Of a stretch of 64,000 nucleotides of DNA, positions 54,004 through 60,748 are shown piece after piece. The notes beneath the pieces were generated by a model. That model had not been told where the DNA came from and did not search any database. It was given only the letters and a program-made list of their open reading frames with translations. A program made the translations under genes and the position numbers. Positions within the stretch are counted from its first letter, which is position 1. Every line of letters begins with the position of its first letter. Origin of the DNA: Gimesia sp. (lineage in GTDB: Bacteria > Planctomycetota > Planctomycetia > Planctomycetales > Planctomycetaceae); contig PAJV01000050.1 of NCBI GenBank assembly GCA_002706765.1, positions 1 through 64,000 of the forward strand, read 5' to 3'.

Positions 54004-55806
54004 TTACTTCACTACCGGCAGCTTATATGCGGCTGCCTCGGTGGAATTTCGCACGTATAACCGGTCGCCGCTCAACACCGGATGATTCCAGGTTTTGCCT
54101 TCCAACGCCTGGAATGTCGCCAGTTCTTTATGTTCTGTGGGGTCTGCTTTGAGTAATACGACGGCTCCCTCTTCGCCGATCACCAGCAGATGCCCGGAGT
54201 CTTTGACCAGCAGCACCTGGCCTTTCCCGTAACGGCCTCCTTTCCATTTGCGCTTCCCGTCTTTGAGATCGAAGCAGGTAAAGATCGCACCGTCAAAACC
54301 GTAAGCATGCCCGTCGTAGATCACACAGTCATTGAAGTCCGGCTTTAAGCCGGTTACAGCCCAGAGCTCTTCCGCCGCCCATTTCCCGTCTTTCTTGGTG
54401 ACATGAATTTTCTGCACCCCTTTGCCCATGCCGGTCGCGATCAGAATTTCATCCTCGCCCGCCAGTTGAGGCTGGAGCACTCTCTGCCCCTCAGAAGCGC
54501 AATCAAAACTCAGCAATACCGCACCATCGGCGGGATCCAGCAGGTTCAGCTCCTTATTCGTCAGCATTGCAATCACGGGCTGTCCGGCTATCGTCAACAG
54601 AGCAGGGGAGCTGTAAGAATGATCGCCGGCAGGAGCCGACCACTTCAACTCCCCCGTTTCCGTATCAAAGGCCAGCAGTCCCTTGTCTCCCTTTCCGCCC
54701 GCATGCACGATAACCGAACCTTCCACAACCAGCGGCGATGAACTGAACCCCCAGATCGGCGGTTCCCGGTCAGCCACCTGACGCACATCCTGCTGCCAGA
54801 TGATCTCCCCGTTGGCCGGGTCCAGTCGCAGCACATGCCCGCTGGCCCCCATCACATACAAGCCCCCGTCCGCCAGCGTCGGTGTCGCCCGTGGTCCGGG
54901 CCCGCCCAGCGCATCATAAAAACGCGTTTTAATCTCCTGCGTCCAGAGTTCCGCGCCCGTCTCGGCATCGTAGCAGACAATCAGTTCCTCTTCGCCCCGC
55001 TGCTCCTGGGTGAACAGCATCGGACCCGCGACCACAAACGAAGACCAGCCGGGCCCGATCGCTTTCTTCCATAACGGCGTCCCCACATCCGCATTCCAGT
55101 CGGCATCCAGGGACACACCGGTCAGCACGCTGTCACGCAACGCCCCTCGAAAGCCGGGCCACTCGGGTTCAGTCAGCGCCGCTTCCAGTTCTGCCGCCGT
55201 CAACGTAGCCTGATCTGCGGGAGCCGCATCCGCTCGCGACAGCATCCGTTCCTCCACGGTCGGCGTCCACCGCCAGGCCAGTTCCATATCATAGTCGCCC
55301 CACATTCCTTCGCTGCGGAGTAACAGTGAAAAGAGGAAGCCCAGCACCGAACAACCCACAATAATCACTGTCCGTTTCGCACTTCGCATGCGTGACACCA
55401 GCAACGCCGCAATCCCGAACAGACCCAGCCCCATCGGCCCGGTGACGAGCATCGCCCCCGGTCCTTGCATGGTAGGATCGATCAACGCCAGTGTCGTACC
55501 CGCTGCCACTAGCACAACGAACAGTCCGATCAGTTTTTCCTTCCACGTCGCCCGACTGGCCAGTACCCACCACACCAGAATCAGTCCACCAAAAATCAAA
55601 GGACCGAACACCGCCGCCATTATCGGCAGCGGAGAATCCGACTCCACCAGTCGCGGCATCAACCGCGTCACCACCATCCCGATCAGTAACAGAATCGGCG
55701 GCCAGATGCGCAGCGGCTTCCATTCGTTGACCGCAGAAGTCGTTTCACTGGCAGCAGGTTCTACGGGAGGTTTCGATTCGGTTTCCGGTTGATTGGTATC
55801 AGTCAT
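54004..55806 (-). CDS. PQQ-type beta-propeller protein with N-terminal membrane domain
   Basis: 600 aa from the ATG at 55806 (AGGG upstream); an earlier frame start at 55854 has a Cys-rich stub and is less likely. A Pro/Glu/Thr-rich start is followed by five hydrophobic helices (about residues 40-165) and then a beta-propeller with PQQ-like repeats: CYDAETGAELWTQEI, RLDPANGEIIWQQDV, AFDTETGELKWSAP and FDLKDGKRKWKGG. This membrane-plus-propeller type is common in planctomycetes. It lacks the residues of true quinoprotein dehydrogenases that I can check, so it is probably a binding or scaffold protein on the outer face of the inner membrane. Confidence 0.9.
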   Translation of the reverse strand: MTDTNQPETESKPPVEPAASETTSAVNEWKPLRIWPPILLLIGMVVTRLMPRLVESDSPLPIMAAVFGPLIFGGLILVWWVLASRATWKEKLIGLFVVLVAAGTTLALIDPTMQGPGAMLVTGPMGLGLFGIAALLVSRMRSAKRTVIIVGCSVLGFLFSLLLRSEGMWGDYDMELAWRWTPTVEERMLSRADAAPADQATLTAAELEAALTEPEWPGFRGALRDSVLTGVSLDADWNADVGTPLWKKAIGPGWSSFVVAGPMLFTQEQRGEEELIVCYDAETGAELWTQEIKTRFYDALGGPGPRATPTLADGGLYVMGASGHVLRLDPANGEIIWQQDVRQVADREPPIWGFSSSPLVVEGSVIVHAGGKGDKGLLAFDTETGELKWSAPAGDHSYSSPALLTIAGQPVIAMLTNKELNLLDPADGAVLLSFDCASEGQRVLQPQLAGEDEILIATGMGKGVQKIHVTKKDGKWAAEELWAVTGLKPDFNDCVIYDGHAYGFDGAIFTCFDLKDGKRKWKGGRYGKGQVLLVKDSGHLLVIGEEGAVVLLKADPTEHKELATFQALEGKTWNHPVLSGDRLYVRNSTEAAAYKLPVVK

Positions 55807-56166
55807 GACAAACCCTGCTGGGAGAAAAGAAGAGGGACAACTCACATTCCACATTGCCGGATCACAGAAGATCCCGCGCTGAACAGAATGGTTGTTTTCT
55901 GTAACTTTAACCAGTCGCTCCGCGGTGTCAAATGCACAAACCGTGATGCGAAACCAATCTCCTGTTTCGATTCACAGCTGCGCTGTTTTCACTCCCGCTT
56001 CCTGCCCGCCGGTCAACAGGAATACTTTCTCATTTATCTGATCTTAACCAGATAGAGATATCAAATTGAAACCGCACTCGTGACAATGGTACAACAGAGA
56101 GTGAGAGGCTTCCTCAAAACGACCAGGGGACCGGAGCGTCTCGATTTAACAGGAAGTAATCTGACC
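55807..56166. other. Divergent promoter region
   Basis: The PQQ-propeller gene and the 138-aa gene diverge from here. An in-frame extension of the latter back to 56080 has a GTG start with no ribosome site. No RNA or repeat is recognised. Confidence 0.4.
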
Positions 56167-56583
56167 ATGGATGATTTGCAATTTTTAAACGCATTCGAAA
56201 ACTGCACACTCCCCTTCGCTGACTGGACGCATCGCGCACATCTCCGCGTTGCTTATCTCTACGCTTCAAAATTTGATCTGCAGACCGCGACCGAAAAAAT
56301 GCGGGCCGGCATCAAAGCGTACAACAAAGCCACCAACACCCCGGAAGAACTCGAACGCGGCTACCACGAAACGATTACCGTCGCCTTCATGCACCTGGTC
56401 ACTGCCACCCTGCAACAGTCGGGACCATTTGAAAACTCCGAAGCATTCTGCGATGCCTGCGCCGTCTCACTCAATAAGCCGGTACTCCTCAAGTACTACA
56501 GCAAAAACCGCATCATCTCCATTAAAGCTAAACAGACTTTCGTAGAACCCGATCTGCAGTCTCTGCCTGCGGTAACTGAATGA
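56167..56583 (+). CDS. Conserved 138-aa protein, unknown
   Basis: The ATG at 56167 has CAGGAAG upstream and begins the conserved part; the frame extends to 56080, but those 29 residues look like leader sequence. The pattern LPFADWTHRAHLRVAYLY and ERGYHETITVAFMHLV occurs in a widespread but uncharacterised bacterial family. The conserved His residues (WTHRAH; GYHET) suggest a metal or ligand site. It is mostly helical and cytoplasmic. No operon partner is seen. Confidence 0.75.
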   Translation: MDDLQFLNAFENCTLPFADWTHRAHLRVAYLYASKFDLQTATEKMRAGIKAYNKATNTPEELERGYHETITVAFMHLVTATLQQSGPFENSEAFCDACAVSLNKPVLLKYYSKNRIISIKAKQTFVEPDLQSLPAVTE

Positions 56584-56728
56584 AAATCATTTCACACTTT
56601 CGAGTTCACAGGCTAGAATGAAATCTGTTTTTTTTAATACACTATTGAATCGGACTCAGTTTTTATCGCGCCGCATGTAAACTGTCGGAAGATCCGCATA
56701 CAATACCTGGAGATATTGGATTCACTCA

Positions 56729-57349
56729 ATGTGCATGAACCCCGAATCGACACCTGATGTACTTTCCTTCTGGCTCTGGTTTGAAAACAATCTGTCGAGG
56801 TTGAACAATTTTGAGGACCATCAGGCAGAACTGCTGGAGGAACTGAATGAGCGACTACAGGAAGTGGATGAGGGACTGGCGTTTGAAATTTCCAGACTGA
56901 ATTCAGAGGGAATTCGTGACCTGGTCTTCAGCGCCGATGGGATGAAAGAGACATTTCCTGCGGTGCTGGCACTGATTGAAAGCTCCCCCGACCTGCCCGA
57001 ATGGACGTTTACTCCGTTTCGCCAGCGGGTCGATGTCTCAGAGTTCGGCCTGAGGTTTGGTGACCGGGAATTGAGAGCCAGCGACTTCTATTTCTGGCTG
57101 CAGACCGAGGACGGAGCCATCGATCTGATTGTCTATGTTCCCGGTCTGACCGAAGAGAACCGTGATGAATTGATGGGCGCGGGTTTCATCCTGCTGGACA
57201 TGACACTGGGCGAATTCGACGTCACTTTGAATCTGCGCTATATCGATTTTCAACCCCTCCCCGAAGATCCGGAAGCCGACGACCTGCTGCCACTCACCGA
57301 ATTACCCCGAGAGTTCGACGAGCTCTTCAATGCTTTGAATGAAGAGTGA
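56729..57349 (+). CDS. Conserved 206-aa protein, unknown
   Basis: No function is known. The start VLSFWLWFENNLSRL followed by helices, then an alpha/beta middle (LPEWTFTPFRQRVDVSE; DLIVYVPGLTEENRDEL) and a very acidic end, matches uncharacterised bacterial proteins. Two ATGs (56729 and 56735) are possible; the ribosome site is weak. It is the last backbone gene before the A+T-rich RT locus, whose operator lies 44 bp after this stop. Confidence 0.7.
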   Translation: MCMNPESTPDVLSFWLWFENNLSRLNNFEDHQAELLEELNERLQEVDEGLAFEISRLNSEGIRDLVFSADGMKETFPAVLALIESSPDLPEWTFTPFRQRVDVSEFGLRFGDRELRASDFYFWLQTEDGAIDLIVYVPGLTEENRDELMGAGFILLDMTLGEFDVTLNLRYIDFQPLPEDPEADDLLPLTELPREFDELFNALNEE

Positions 57350-57392
57350 GCTGGAGTCAAAACAGCATGTCAAACGAAACATCCCTTTCTAC

Positions 57393-57410
57393 CGGTTAAT
57401 TTATTAACCG
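57393..57410. promoter_or_regulatory. Palindromic operator upstream of the RT locus promoter
   Basis: CGGTTAAT-TT-ATTAACCG is a perfect 18-bp palindrome with a two-base centre. It ends three bases before the -35 box. The locus encodes an XRE protein, so auto-regulation is the simplest reading (inference). Confidence 0.7.
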
Positions 57411-57413
57411 CTA

Positions 57414-57441
57414 TTGACATCTTATTTGGGTGTGATATCTT
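57414..57441 (+). promoter_or_regulatory. Sigma-70-type promoter of the RT locus
   Basis: -35 TTGACA (57414-57419), 16-base spacer, -10 TATCTT (57436-57441). Transcription would begin near 57448, giving an untranslated leader of about 265 nt before the first gene. Confidence 0.75.
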
Positions 57442-57447
57442 AACGAG

Positions 57448-57690
57448 CGCAACACAGTAAATGTTTTGCCTGTTCTTTGAAAATTTAAGATCGTTTGTTA
57501 GGGAACCTCCTTCGACCTTTGCGGGCTATCCCGAAAGGTGCCGCGTGCCGTTCGCGGTCGCGGACGACGTATGTCGTACGTGACCACCCGATTGGTGGTA
57601 CCAGTTGAGGGCTGCCGACGAATTTCTATTTTATTAGGAATTTTAGGTTGTTGACTCAATTTCCCGGGGGGATTTAAATCTCCTTCCATT
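57448..57690 (+). ncRNA. Highly structured leader/ncRNA of the RT locus (candidate RT template)
   Basis: Six stem-loops can be drawn. H1 57515-57539 (CCTTTGCGGG with CCCGAAAGG, one bulge). H2 57541-57557 (CCGCG/CGCGG). H3 57564-57577 (ACGAC/GTCGT), with a rival hairpin ACGTA/TACGT at 57567-57581. H4 57583-57599 (ACCACC/GGTGGT). H5 57621-57642 (AATTTCTA/TAGGAATT, one wobble). H6 57668-57683 (GGGGAT/ATCTCC, one wobble). No good open frame runs along it. A structured RNA just before an RT operon fits a retron msr-msd or another ncRNA template; I could not identify the a1/a2 arms of a retron or a branching G. Ends are estimated. Confidence 0.6.
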
Positions 57691-57713
57691 CCTTTATTAG
57701 GAGGCATTGTCCT

Positions 57714-57998
57714 ATGGACAAGACTAGCCAACGATCAGGCACCTGGCGAGCTTGTGAAGAACTCCATGCGATCGAAAATCGTATGGTTGCAATTCGCAAA
57801 TTGTTGAAATCGATTCAACATCAAAGTTCAACAGGTGGGGAAGCGATGGATGACGCGCTGAAAATAGCTCAGACTATCGAAGATCTTGCTTCGTATGGGC
57901 GAAATTCCAGTGCGGTGAATGCTCTCGAAATCGTATCTATTTTAGAAATTTCGCTTTCTATTTTGGATGCTGAAATTGACAGCTTCCTTACATCCTGA
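57714..57998 (+). CDS. 94-aa helical protein of the RT locus, unknown
   Basis: ATG at 57714 after an excellent AGGAGG (57699-57704). The product looks all-helical: a basic first half (ENRMVAIRKLLKSIQHQ) and a hydrophobic second half (ALEIVSILEISLSILDAEI). No family is recognised; it is shorter than the Avd accessory of diversity-generating retroelements and shows no likeness to it. As the first gene after the structured RNA it may bind that RNA or be the toxic arm of the unit (inference). The ribosome site AGGAGG can pair with CCTCCT at 57506-57511 in the leader. Confidence 0.7.
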   Translation: MDKTSQRSGTWRACEELHAIENRMVAIRKLLKSIQHQSSTGGEAMDDALKIAQTIEDLASYGRNSSAVNALEIVSILEISLSILDAEIDSFLTS

Positions 57999-58006
57999 GG
58001 TCAACT

Positions 58007-58025
58007 AGGGATCAGAAGGGTCCCT
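58007..58025 (+). promoter_or_regulatory. Hairpin between the 94-aa gene and the XRE gene
   Basis: AGGGATC (58007-58013) pairs with GGTCCCT (58019-58025), one wobble, five-base loop. There is no T run, so it is more likely an mRNA processing or stability element than a terminator. Confidence 0.5.
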
Positions 58026-58059
58026 TGCTCAATATACTGTTAGTAAGGAGTCAATCCAG

Positions 58060-58410
58060 GTGAATAACCTAGGAAAGACGATTAGAATAATTCGTCAAGC
58101 CAAAGGAATGAAACTAAATTCGTTGGCAAAAAGTGCCGGGGTAAGTGTACCTTTTTTGAGCCTAGTTGAAGGAGGAGATAGACAACCATCCTTACATGTA
58201 CTGAGAAAACTCGCAGAAGGATTAAGTATTCCTTCTGAAGCACTTATATTGATGAGTGTCGGCAATAATTCAGAGCTCACTTCTTCTGATGAAGTAACTA
58301 CTGAAATCACTAAAAATGTTGATCGTTTGATCAAACTCGAAGAAAAGTTGGAACTACTTTTACAAGCTAGCGAGGGCACGGATGAACCCAAAGTCAATCA
58401 CTCCAGCTGA
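58060..58410 (+). CDS. XRE-family HTH regulator of the RT locus
   Basis: 116 aa from a GTG with AAGGAG nine bases upstream. Residues 1-70 form a standard XRE HTH (IRIIRQAKGMKLNSLAKSAG, then LSLVEGGDRQPSLHVLRKLA). The C-terminal 45 residues form a Glu/Lys-rich coiled coil (RLIKLEEKLELLLQ), likely for dimerisation. The RT gene starts inside its last codons (29-base overlap), so expression is linked. It is the likely ligand of the palindrome at 57393-57410. HTH proteins accompany one described retron class (type VI). Confidence 0.9.
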   Translation: MNNLGKTIRIIRQAKGMKLNSLAKSAGVSVPFLSLVEGGDRQPSLHVLRKLAEGLSIPSEALILMSVGNNSELTSSDEVTTEITKNVDRLIKLEEKLELLLQASEGTDEPKVNHSS

Positions 58411-59428
58411 AATCGCTGCTGCAATGAAAATGACAGAACGACAGCTTTGGACGTTCACTCGCAATTTCGAGAAGTTGTTCAAGCCGACTCGAGAAATCAT
58501 GATAGGAAGTAAAAAAAGAGCAATAGATGCGCCTCGAGATTCGGCAAAAAAGAAGCTGAAATTATTACATAAATGGTTTTTTGAAAAAAAACTATTTCAC
58601 CCATCAGCTCACGGTGGAGTCAGACACCGTTCTTGTTTCACAAGTGCTCAACAACATCTAGGGAAAAAATTTGTATGGACTCGCGATGCATCAGATTGTT
58701 ATCCGTCTATTACACCTGAGATGTTTTTTTATGAGTTAAAACGAATTGGATTCCGCCAAGATACTGCTACATTATTGACACGATTATGTACTGTTCGTGG
58801 TAGCATTCCTCAAGGATCTCCTGTAAGCAATGATGCGATAAACCTCTATTTCTGGCGTATTGATCAGTTCCTTAAGTCACTTTCTGGAGCGAATGATTTA
58901 TCGTATTCAAGAGTGGCTGACGATTTTGTCCTCTCAGGATATAAAAAATACTTAGGGGATAATATTTTACTTCGATTAGAGGGTATGCTGCAGCAGTTTG
59001 GGATTCAGATCAATGACAAAAAACGTAGGAAATCTGGATTTCAAAACCGGTCAAATCCTCAACTAGTTCATAGCATAAGAGTCGACTTACGGCGCGGTAC
59101 CAAAATCTCGCAAGAACATAGAACCAAGATAATAGATCTTGCTAATTCATATGAAGCTGCCTGCAAGCGTGTGCAGCCTTCATCATTAGAGCCTATCGCT
59201 CACAAAAGACAGCAACTAATTGGATATCTTCATTACTCAAGACAAGCAGATTTATCGCCTATTAAGCATCTCAAATCCAAAATTCAAAACGGTGATAGAA
59301 GAGTTTCGAGAATACTCAAAAATCTGCACATTTCCGCTTTCAAAGGAAAATGGTGGTTAGTAAGTTCAAAAAGAAATGAACCCCGAAGATTGAAGTCGAT
59401 TTGGATGAAGCGTTTAGAAGCAAACTGA
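58382..59428 (+). CDS. Divergent retron-like reverse transcriptase
   Basis: 348 aa, the size of a retron or short unknown-group RT; no intron maturase domain. Palm motifs are present: GGVRHRSCFTSAQQH (residues 78-92; SAxxH where retrons have NAxxH), first Asp D102 in TRDASDCYPSI, PQGSPVSN (143-150), and V178-A-D-D181 with two catalytic Asp. Differences from typical retrons are V for Y in YADD, N for P after QGxxxS, and LVHS (228-231) where the VTG of retron RTs is expected. A basic C-terminal region follows. It is co-expressed with the XRE gene through overlap and is preceded by a structured RNA. The DNA is A+T-richer than both flanks. It is probably active as a polymerase; the class is unsure. 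Confidence 0.88.
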   Translation: MNPKSITPAEIAAAMKMTERQLWTFTRNFEKLFKPTREIMIGSKKRAIDAPRDSAKKKLKLLHKWFFEKKLFHPSAHGGVRHRSCFTSAQQHLGKKFVWTRDASDCYPSITPEMFFYELKRIGFRQDTATLLTRLCTVRGSIPQGSPVSNDAINLYFWRIDQFLKSLSGANDLSYSRVADDFVLSGYKKYLGDNILLRLEGMLQQFGIQINDKKRRKSGFQNRSNPQLVHSIRVDLRRGTKISQEHRTKIIDLANSYEAACKRVQPSSLEPIAHKRQQLIGYLHYSRQADLSPIKHLKSKIQNGDRRVSRILKNLHISAFKGKWWLVSSKRNEPRRLKSIWMKRLEAN

Positions 59429-59611
59429 ATATATAGTAAAATTAATATGCTATTATAGAATCTGATTCATTTTACATTACCATTCCTACTTCAGATTAAA
59501 TCCTCTTCACAACCCATCCCTTTTTCTTTACATCTTCACCCCCACCCGGCATCATAGTGTGAACGTCTTTTAAGAAATCACTCCTGTTCCCCTGAATGAA
59601 GTGAGGCGGCT
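59429..59611. other. Right flank of the RT insert
   Basis: A+T-rich non-coding DNA changes to the backbone composition within this stretch. No direct repeat with the left flank (57350-57392) was seen by eye. Confidence 0.4.
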
Positions 59612-60379
59612 ATGCTGGTGAAGAAGTTGAAAGACAAACTGATCAAAGGCGAAACCGTGTATGGCTCGCTGTTTCAGTACTCCGTTGTGCCGGCGATGGT
59701 GGAATCGATTCCCGAAAACTCGCTCGACTTTGTGATCGTCACCCCCGAACATACGACCCTCGATCTCGCGGAGTTCCTCCCCCTGCGATATGCCCTCAAC
59801 TCCAAAGGCATCGCCTGCCTGGCCCGCACGCACAGTCGCGATGCCGCCGATGTCGCCCGCGTCTGTGATACCTTTGATGGCGTGGTCGTTCCCTACGTCG
59901 AAGAATACGAACAGGCCCAGCAACTCGCAGCCGCCGCCGTCTATCGACCGCTCAAAGGAATCGTGCTGGATGAAGTTCTCAAGACCGGCATATTCGTCAA
60001 TCAGAAAACCGCTGATTACATCGAGAAACGCAACGAGAACACACTCTTCATTCCGATGATCGAATCGGTGCCCGGCATTCAGAACCTGGAAAAGATCTGT
60101 TCGATTCCCGGCGTGCATGCCGTCTTCGTCGGTCCCGGCGACCTGACCGCCAACATGGGAATCCCCGGGGAATACGACAGCCCCGAGTTGATCGCCGCCA
60201 TCCAGAAAGTCATCGACATCGCCAATCAGCAGCATGTCGCCGCGGGCTGCTGGTTTGGCACTACCAGACAGGCCGTCCGCACCATCCGCCAGGGCGCCCG
60301 CCTGGTCGTCTACGCCAACGACGGACTCATGATGCAGCACGCCATGCAAACCGCCTTCAGCGAACTCCGCAAAGGGTAA
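59612..60379 (+). CDS. HpcH/HpaI-type aldolase
   Basis: 255 aa, full length for the family. The TIM-barrel metal and substrate segments are visible: FVIVTPEHTTLDL, CLARTHSRDA, IPMIESVPGIQNLEKI (metal-binding Glu) and FVGPGDLTANMG (metal-binding Asp). Family members split or form 2-keto-3-deoxy sugar acids or 4-hydroxy-2-oxo acids with pyruvate. The substrate is not predictable and no pathway genes are adjacent. ATG at 59612 follows GAGGCG. Codon use is backbone-like, in contrast with the RT gene before it. Confidence 0.93.
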   Translation: MLVKKLKDKLIKGETVYGSLFQYSVVPAMVESIPENSLDFVIVTPEHTTLDLAEFLPLRYALNSKGIACLARTHSRDAADVARVCDTFDGVVVPYVEEYEQAQQLAAAAVYRPLKGIVLDEVLKTGIFVNQKTADYIEKRNENTLFIPMIESVPGIQNLEKICSIPGVHAVFVGPGDLTANMGIPGEYDSPELIAAIQKVIDIANQQHVAAGCWFGTTRQAVRTIRQGARLVVYANDGLMMQHAMQTAFSELRKG

Positions 60380-60748
60380 ACGAACACAAGCCACAACCCA
60401 CAGGTGATACCGGATGCAATCCGGTACGAGCGCAGCGAGCAGGAAACTGTCAGAGCAAGCGACCAATCCAGCAACAGAAAACCAGCCACGCAGCAGCGAA
60501 CCCGTATGTCCGCACCCTACTGCAACCGGGATCGAAATGATCCTCTTAACGACACGTCTTCACCCATAACCTCCTGTTGTCTCCGCCAACACCGAATTAC
60601 ATTCGGGGCCATCTGGATTTTTACTTCACACCAACCAGAACCAACGCCGGTGTGCCACTGATCGGCTTGTCCGACAGTGCTGGTTCAATACCAGTTCAAA
60701 GCTTCCGATACACCAAAAAGCAGGAACTGTTCTATTTAAATCAATGCT
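60380..60748. other. Non-coding gap between convergent genes
   Basis: The aldolase and ceramidase-like genes converge here. Plus-strand frames in this stretch have no ribosome sites and run on as antisense of the ceramidase-like gene. No clear terminator is seen. Confidence 0.4.

What the first reader, a model, noticed from the sequence alone, without database searches (positions are those of the whole stretch)
57393..59428. RT locus with structured RNA, 94-aa protein and XRE regulator: candidate undescribed RT-based defence unit
Seen: operator, promoter, about 250 nt of hairpins, a small helical protein, an XRE protein overlapping a 348-aa RT, all A+T-rich and inserted between backbone genes. 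Established: retrons and several unknown-group RTs use an upstream ncRNA as template and act against phages; one retron class (type VI) has an HTH partner. Inference: this is a retron-like or DRT-like unit. The RT motifs and the extra 94-aa gene do not match any set I know.
Basis: partly seen in the sequence, partly recalled or inferred. Interest (0 to 1): 0.85.

Follow-up and report, generated by a model that had tools for sequence, protein, structure and literature searches.

The report
Planctomycete type VI-like retron with boxA
This is a small inserted gene set, a reverse transcriptase with a regulator, a small protein and a structured RNA, that looks like a divergent relative of known bacterial anti-virus units called type VI retrons, with an unusual transcription signal at the front of its RNA.

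Summary
In detail: operator, promoter, structured leader RNA, 94-aa gene, XRE gene and 348-aa RT lie in a 2.17-kb insert (57355-59520); a same-genus genome has 47 nt there. The gene set is not undescribed: PADLOC's best models are HTH_VI and RT_VI, and one paper describes type VI retrons as RT + DNA-binding protein + small auxiliary protein. I collected nine intact relatives, all Planctomycetota (searched mainly there). All ten loci keep leader RNA, a 94-101-aa basic/acidic protein, XRE and RT in order. Their RTs form one clade (100/100) on a long stem; whether it joins type VI is unresolved. All ten replace the retron VTG motif by (V/I)H(S/G/N). I found two features in no held paper: the small-protein family, without library match above cut-off, and a promoter-proximal boxA-like element. 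Leaders are more stable than shuffles (mean z -2.8). My guess that a retron a1/a2 stem hides the ribosome-binding site was tested and not supported. Most likely this is a tripartite antiphage unit in which an RT-RNA/DNA complex controls the small protein; msDNA, defence and toxicity are untested.

The parts
57355..59520 (.). whole insert (2166 bp) absent from a same-genus relative, which has 47 nt at the site
   Evidence: blastn against L131: window 55213-57354 = L131 10-2126, window 59521-60418 = L131 2174-3069
57390..57413 (.). palindromic operator touching the -35 box; likely site of the XRE protein (inference)
   Evidence: inverted repeat, 91% complementary; AT-rich sequence at the same place in the nine relatives, a clear dyad by eye in L051 and L110, imperfect in the others (no statistic)
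57414..57441 (+). sigma-70-type promoter TTGACA-16-TATCTT
   Evidence: TTGAC at the same place in all ten loci
57471..57486 (+). boxA-like element TGTTCTTTGAAAATTT
   Evidence: 10 of 11 match to the L. pneumophila Lens CRISPR boxA; only match in the own genome to a pattern drawn from this element and its relatives; similar element in 10 of 10 loci
57442..57713 (+). structured 5' leader RNA, candidate msr-msd (start approximate)
   Evidence: 57440-57713 z -3.5; mean z -2.8 over ten loci, control 0.006
57506..57511 (+). CCTCCT, candidate partner of the ribosome-binding site
   Evidence: pairing probability about 0.3-0.56 per base in the window; not above shuffles over the set
57583..57599 (+). 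hairpin ACCACC/GGTGGT, followed by a recurring GTTGAGG-like motif (57604-57610)
   Evidence: fold; similar hairpin plus motif in L103, L104, L110, by eye
57604..57660 (+). long hairpin, candidate msd template
   Evidence: fold; assignment as msd is inference
57666..57687 (+). last hairpin before the ribosome-binding site; terminator-like in the window
57699..57704 (+). AGGAGG, ribosome-binding site of the 94-aa gene
   Evidence: sequence
57714..57998 (+). 94-aa protein, basic N-part and acidic C-part; candidate effector or RNA/DNA-binding partner
   Evidence: homologous gene in 10 of 10 loci; charge split in 10 of 10; no library hit above cut-off
58007..58025 (+). hairpin between the 94-aa gene and the XRE gene
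   Evidence: hairpin at about the same place with different letters in the ten loci, but stability not above shuffles
58060..58410 (+). XRE/Cro-type regulator (HTH_VI), 116 aa
58382..59428 (+). reverse transcriptase, 348 aa (RT_VI best model), catalytic VADD kept, SAQQH at NAxxH, VHS at VTG

Best explanation
It is a type VI-like retron unit of a divergent branch so far seen only in Planctomycetota; it looks and probably works like a type VI retron, while membership by descent is open. SHOWN: gene order, homologous relatives, structured leader RNA, a boxA-like element, a dyad next to the promoter, presence/absence between close relatives. INFERRED: the XRE protein binds the dyad and sets transcription of the whole unit; Nus factors at boxA keep RNA polymerase going through the untranslated structured leader; the RT binds this leader and copies part of it into msDNA; the RT-RNA-DNA complex (perhaps with the XRE) keeps the small protein inactive; phage infection disturbs the complex, the small protein is freed or made, and the cell stops growing before phage release.
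For: RT_VI is the best PADLOC model for the window (8e-38) and for the eight other branch RTs scanned (L051, L098, L099, L103, L104, L107, L108, L110; L109 not scanned). The XRE is HTH_VI, 4.8e-20. Type VI is described as RT + DNA-binding protein + small auxiliary protein (PMC8541194 passages). 10 of 10 loci have leader RNA, small gene and XRE upstream of the RT. In 198 genomes of the class the small-protein profile hits strongly (E<1e-30) in 3, which all hold the RT. RNA z mean -2.8 against 0.006 in RT-gene controls. boxA match sums of 84 and 91 exceed all 1000 shuffles. Catalytic DD kept in all 36 RTs aligned. Empty site in a close relative.
Against: RT_VI beats the next model by only 9 bits (128.3 against 119.1 for RT_III-A). 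Three RT trees do not put the branch inside the type VI group. VTG is replaced in 10 of 10 and NAxxH in 10 of 10. No Rfam match to the leader, and no type VI covariance model was available. A retron a1/a2 stem could not be shown, and hiding of the ribosome site is not above chance. The boxA regions were centred on an element that I had picked by eye; 5 of 10 loci are not significant singly for the Lens consensus, and in L098 its best match lies elsewhere. No direct evidence for msDNA, toxicity or defence. The branch's small protein shows no detectable homology to those of the other type VI-like loci compared.
Confidence: 0.62

Rival explanations
1. It is a retron type of its own: a separate RT lineage that recruited (or kept from an old ancestor) an XRE gene and a small gene, and so only resembles type VI.
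For: Clade 100/100 with stem length 1.6-2.0; neighbours weakly supported (a type IX row at 34/80 or 92/83); VTG and NAxxH replaced in 10 of 10; small-protein family without detectable kin in other type VI-like loci.
Against: RT_VI best in the nine branch RTs scanned; HTH_VI for the two branch XREs scanned, window and L051; the tree that holds the branch together with VI and V is not rejected (p 0.41; p 0.23 with VI alone after removal of four rows).
Confidence: 0.3
2. The small protein is not the effector but a nucleic-acid-binding partner of the RT (as Avd is for DGR RTs, recalled), and the XRE or the RT complex itself is the sensor or effector.
For: Basic N-part (+2 to +10) and acidic C-part (-4 to -9) in 10 of 10; co-occurrence with the RT in the sample.
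Against: In phage type VI-like loci the same position holds short cationic/hydrophobic peptides, which look more like membrane toxins; no structure could be predicted.
Confidence: 0.3
3. The leader is an ordinary 5' UTR riboregulator of a toxin-like small gene, and the RT uses some other template.
For: The leader ends at the small gene's ribosome site; long-range pairing of that site is predicted in window, L108, L109, L110 (with CCUCC) and L051 (with UGAUCUCC).
Against: Hiding of the site is not above shuffles over the ten loci (mean unpaired 0.284 against 0.285); the RNA is at the place where retron ncRNAs lie (recalled).
Confidence: 0.12
4. It is a DRT/unknown-group RT unit rather than a retron.
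For: RT next to a structured RNA and a small gene.
Against: Retron models score far above the Drt2, Drt3a and Drt4 models, which stay below cut-off.
Confidence: 0.04

Closest known systems
Type VI retrons (Mestre 2020 scheme, paper not held; PADLOC RT_VI + HTH_VI)
   Same: RT preceded by an overlapping or adjacent HTH gene, a small gene before that; best profile for both RT and HTH
   Different: RT forms its own clade; VTG and NAxxH replaced; small protein of a different family; boxA-like element at the leader's 5' end; found only in Planctomycetota here (searched mainly there)
Phage-borne type VI-like units (Shewanella MuM16-1, Klebsiella ST147-VIM1phi7.1, P2_2H1, Burkholderia KS5, Pasteurella Pmp14, Yersinia vB_YenM_56.17)
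   Same: small ORF - XRE - RT order with a leader before the small ORF
   Different: small ORF codes for a short cationic/hydrophobic peptide (unannotated in some records); no clear boxA by eye, and in L065, L067, L111, L112 a 5' hairpin followed by AACATTT
boxA-led CRISPR arrays
   Same: boxA upstream of a long untranslated defence RNA (PMC7862264 passages)
   Different: here the RNA is a retron-type leader in front of coding genes
Type V retrons
   Same: the one type V RT row fell inside the type VI group; the Alteromonas type VI-like RT scores RT_VI 270.7 and RT_V 266.7 bits
   Different: the type V row is an RT followed by a retron Se72 effector, no XRE before it

Membership tests
Type VI retron | RT scores best with the type VI RT model | tested here: met
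   RT_VI 8e-38, 128.3 bits, next 119.1; best in the eight other branch RTs scanned
Type VI retron | adjacent HTH protein of the type VI model | tested here: met
   HTH_VI 4.8e-20 in the window, 4.6e-17 in L051; the other eight branch XREs were not scanned by hmmscan, but align with it
Type VI retron | small auxiliary protein gene | tested here: met
   10 of 10 loci; definition from PMC8541194
Type VI retron | RT inside the type VI clade | tested here: inconclusive
   not inside in three trees; joint clade with VI and V not rejected (p 0.41), nor with VI after removal of four rows (p 0.23); the test that left the V row outside gave p 0.008
Retron (general) | RT motifs NAxxH and VTG (recalled) | tested here: not met
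   (S/A)AxxH and (V/I)H(S/G/N) in 10 of 10; of the 26 other retron-type rows 19 have NAxxH and 21 xTG, so the motifs are not strict; type IX and Alteromonas rows have VHG
Retron (general) | structured upstream ncRNA | tested here: met
   z -1.9 to -4.4 in 10 of 10
Retron (general) | a1/a2 inverted repeats flanking msr-msd | tested here: inconclusive
   summed duplex -197.5 against -186.9 +- 11.2, 74 of 500 shuffles as low; own pairs -19.7, mismatched pairs -18.7 on average; only one placement tried
Retron (general) | msDNA production | not testable with these tools
   needs expression and gel or sequencing
Retron (general) | antiphage defence | not testable with these tools
   needs phage assays
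DRT / unknown-group RT | score over curated cut-off of a DRT model | tested here: not met
   Drt2 38.9 of 390, Drt3a 19.1 of 200, Drt4 17.5 of 450 bits
boxA antiterminator | promoter-proximal match to boxA | tested here: met
   sums over ten loci 84 and 91 against shuffle maxima 75 and 80; loci are related, regions were centred on the element, and a 12-base boxA pattern with one mismatch occurs 8 times in the 64-kb window
boxA antiterminator | same element in the host's own rRNA leaders; Nus binding | not testable with these tools
   no 16S gene found in own or genus genomes

The most novel reading that the evidence does not exclude
A retron type peculiar to Planctomycetota, with its own RT lineage lacking VTG, a new small bipolar effector family, and a template RNA made on an antiterminated (boxA/Nus) transcript; the first retron whose RNA supply would depend on the rRNA-type antitermination machinery.
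Probability: 0.3. Interest if true: 0.65.

Novelty: new variant of a known kind. Interest (0 to 1): 0.5.

Why it matters
I found no held paper that tells how type VI retrons work or what their small protein does. A branch with ten divergent intact copies, a conserved small protein and clear RNA landmarks gives a family on which RNA boundaries, the role of the small protein and RT-RNA recognition without VTG can be tested. A boxA at the head of a retron RNA would link this class to ribosomal-RNA-type antitermination, as reported for CRISPR arrays (PMC7862264 passages).

Tried and rejected
Hiding of the ribosome site as the control principle: suggestive in single folds, not above shuffles over ten loci. 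a1/a2 stem between the post-boxA segment and the ribosome site: inconclusive. Intergenic hairpin before the XRE: same place, different letters, stability not above shuffles. A conserved terminator after the leader: a strict scan found a match in 1 of 10 leaders, L098; a looser scan calls one in the window. Homology of the branch's small protein to those of L036, L037, L111, L116, L123: none detectable. Pfam GIT1_C/Talin matches of the 94-aa protein: below cut-off, in 1 of 10 members, rejected. The first AU test (p 0.008) was set aside because a type V row that sits inside the type VI group had been left out of the tested set. Covariation on the leader was not run: MAFFT alignments were too divergent.

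Rows dropped: broken locus L040 (found by its XRE) was left out of the ten-locus counts; near-copies L069, L100, L101, L105, L106 of loci already counted were not counted again. Of the 29 loci L006-L034, ten entered the first tree and nine the second. L112 and L007 were left out of the second tree; the third tree also left out L122, L123, L116 and L051. L119 and L121 were cut to their RT part for the trees only.
Full report
What is there. At 57355-59520 lies a 2166-bp insert. In same-genus genome G136 the flanks are collinear (83.6% and 90.7% identity) with 47 nt between them. Six other same-genus loci carry other ORFs after the 206-aa gene. The insert holds an inverted repeat touching the -35 box, a promoter, a leader of about 270 nt, a 94-aa gene, an XRE gene (GTG start) and a 348-aa RT that overlaps it by 29 nt. 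The RT/XRE bins are 36-41% GC against 46-62% around; the leader/94-aa bin is 47%. I saw no recombinase or transposase among its ORFs.

What the genes are. Pfam: HTH_3 and RVT_1 above cut-off; nothing above cut-off for the 94-aa protein. PADLOC: HTH_VI 4.8e-20 for the XRE, RT_VI 8e-38 for the RT; the RT's margin over RT_III-A is 9 bits. NCBIfam: retron St85 RT at 116 bits, under its cut-off of 235; DRT models far under theirs. PHROGs, PADLOC and NCBIfam have nothing convincing for the 94-aa protein. Rfam has nothing for 57340-58100 up to E 5.

Relatives. A two-row RT alignment found L098 (Pirellulales MAG, 51%), L099 (Phycisphaerales MAG, 36%) and L100 (30%, same as L051) in the genome collection; the window RT alone had found none, and viral contigs gave none. 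tblastn of the RT against plasmids and phages gave no record covered to 80%. Whole-genome searches with a four-row RT profile, made only within this phylum, gave 4 of 397 genomes of the class and 6 of 298 of the class of G479 at E<=1e-60. Removing duplicates leaves ten intact loci: window, L098, L099, L051, L103, L104, L107, L108, L109, L110. In 392 genomes of the phylum, 5 had E<1e-120 with a profile (A2) that had been built from these five loci and one phage; the next match was 8e-60; three of the five (G285, G304, G332) belong to the other type VI group. In all ten loci a homologous small gene (94-101 aa, L107 with a TTG start) and an XRE gene precede the RT. The small-protein profile hits E<1e-30 in 3 of 198 genomes of the class (G000, G552, G626), all with the RT; three further hits (1.3e-4 to 9.1e-4) carry a stop or lie in long ORFs. 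None of the 14 other same-genus genomes listed has the RT. So the unit is rare and sporadic.

Other type VI-like loci. Thirteen further loci were looked at: L022, L035, L036, L037, two plasmids (L116 Alteromonas, L123 Riemerella) and seven phage records (L065, L066, L067, L111-L114). By mechanical ORF listing or annotation all 13 have a small ORF upstream (48-161 codons as listed) and 12 of 13 an HTH gene before the RT; in L114, an unverified 4.6-kb contig, I saw none. RT_VI was the best model in the nine scanned, by 4 bits over RT_V in L116; L111-L114 were not scanned. The phage small ORFs are short cationic/hydrophobic peptides; in MuM16-1 the one I list (48 codons) is not the annotated p31.

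RT phylogeny. In three trees (30, 36 and 32 rows) the branch is one clade, 100/100, on a stem of 1.6-2.0 changes per column, and not inside the type VI group; its nearest neighbour, a type IX row, has 34/80 or 92/83. A type V row falls inside the type VI group. Holding the branch with type VI and V is not rejected (p 0.41), nor with type VI after removal of four rows (p 0.23); holding it with VI but leaving the V row outside was rejected (p 0.008), which I attribute to the V row. So membership in type VI by descent is open, and I call the unit type VI-like. All 36 RTs keep the catalytic DD. All ten branch RTs have (S/A)AxxH and (V/I)H(S/G/N); of the 26 other rows 19 have NAxxH and 21 xTG, and the type IX and Alteromonas rows also have VHG.

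The RNA. The ten leaders, from boxA to the small gene's start codon (180-289 nt), fold with z -1.9 to -4.4, mean -2.8; 246-nt stretches in the RT genes of the same loci give a mean of 0.006. By eye they share hairpins in a similar order, with a GTTGAGG-like motif in window, L103, L104 and L110, and a last hairpin before the ribosome site; divergence was too high for a covariation test. At their 5' end all ten have a boxA-like element (window TGTTCTTTGAAAATTT; L108 and L109 with TCGTTG for TCTTTG). Best-match sums are 84 against a shuffle maximum of 75 for the boxA of the L. pneumophila Lens CRISPR array (PMC7862264 passages), and 91 against 80 for the E. coli rrn boxA (recalled). Against this: the scored regions were centred on the element that I had picked by eye, the loci are related, 5 of 10 are not below p 0.05 singly for the Lens string, in L098 its best match lies elsewhere, and a 12-base boxA pattern with one mismatch occurs 8 times in the 64-kb window. 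A longer pattern drawn from the element and its relatives occurs once in the own genome, here. Comparison with rRNA leaders was not possible. A search for papers with both retron and boxA returned one irrelevant poster volume.

Against my own idea. In the window, L108, L109 and L110 the ribosome site is predicted to pair with an upstream CCUCC, and in L051 with UGAUCUCC, but over the set the site is no less accessible than with shuffled leaders (0.284 against 0.285), and complementarity between the two segments is not above shuffles or mismatched loci. I therefore do not claim an a1/a2 stem or translational gating.

The small protein. Ten members share R28, L31, A48, I55, E56, A67 and L84, and nearly always E21, K29, D47 and E78. 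The N-part is basic (+2 to +10) and the C-part acidic (-4 to -9) in 10 of 10. No PDB sequence matches below E 0.4; structure prediction failed and was then switched off. Its role as effector is inferred from its place in the unit and from the toxin-like peptides at the same place in phages; a nucleic-acid-binding partner role is nearly as likely.

Literature. Mestre 2020, which defines type VI, is not held; its content is taken from PMC8541194 (passages). I also saw passages of PMC8934634, PMC7862264, PMC9122126 and PMC12548924. Searches around type VI retrons and retrons in planctomycetes listed, judging by titles and abstract beginnings, no paper that treats this branch; most subscription papers and all bioRxiv-only preprints are outside the library.

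Verdict.

Noticed in passing
L040 (G313), minus strand, about 1300-2120: A relative of this unit whose XRE is 46% (global) to 58% (BLAST) identical to the window's, but whose RT and small gene are interrupted: apparently a decaying copy.
   Followed up: partly
58007-58025 and the same place in nine relatives: Hairpin between the small gene's stop and the XRE gene with different stem letters in each locus, followed by a short recurring ATAGACTG-like motif; stability alone not above shuffles.
   Followed up: partly
site after the 206-aa gene (56729-57349), before the HpaI-type aldolase gene (59612-60379): Empty in L131; in L132 and L137 about 1 kb of other ORFs (a 191/192-aa cysteine-rich and a 102-aa one) lies before the aldolase, and L133-L136 also have other ORFs there (aldolase beyond the fetched stretch in L134-L136), so the site may be variable.
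   Followed up: partly
L132-L137: A 100-102-aa ORF beginning M(N/R/T)Q(T/A)ELI recurs after the 206-aa gene in six same-genus genomes.
   Followed up: no
L122 in the RT tree: A type V retron RT (with Se72 effector) falls inside the type VI RT group, so type VI as scored by profile may not be one clade.
   Followed up: partly
own genome C27:4019-4642, C63:14317-14955, C30:8728-9318: Three further RVT_1 loci in the own genome, not typed here.
   Followed up: no
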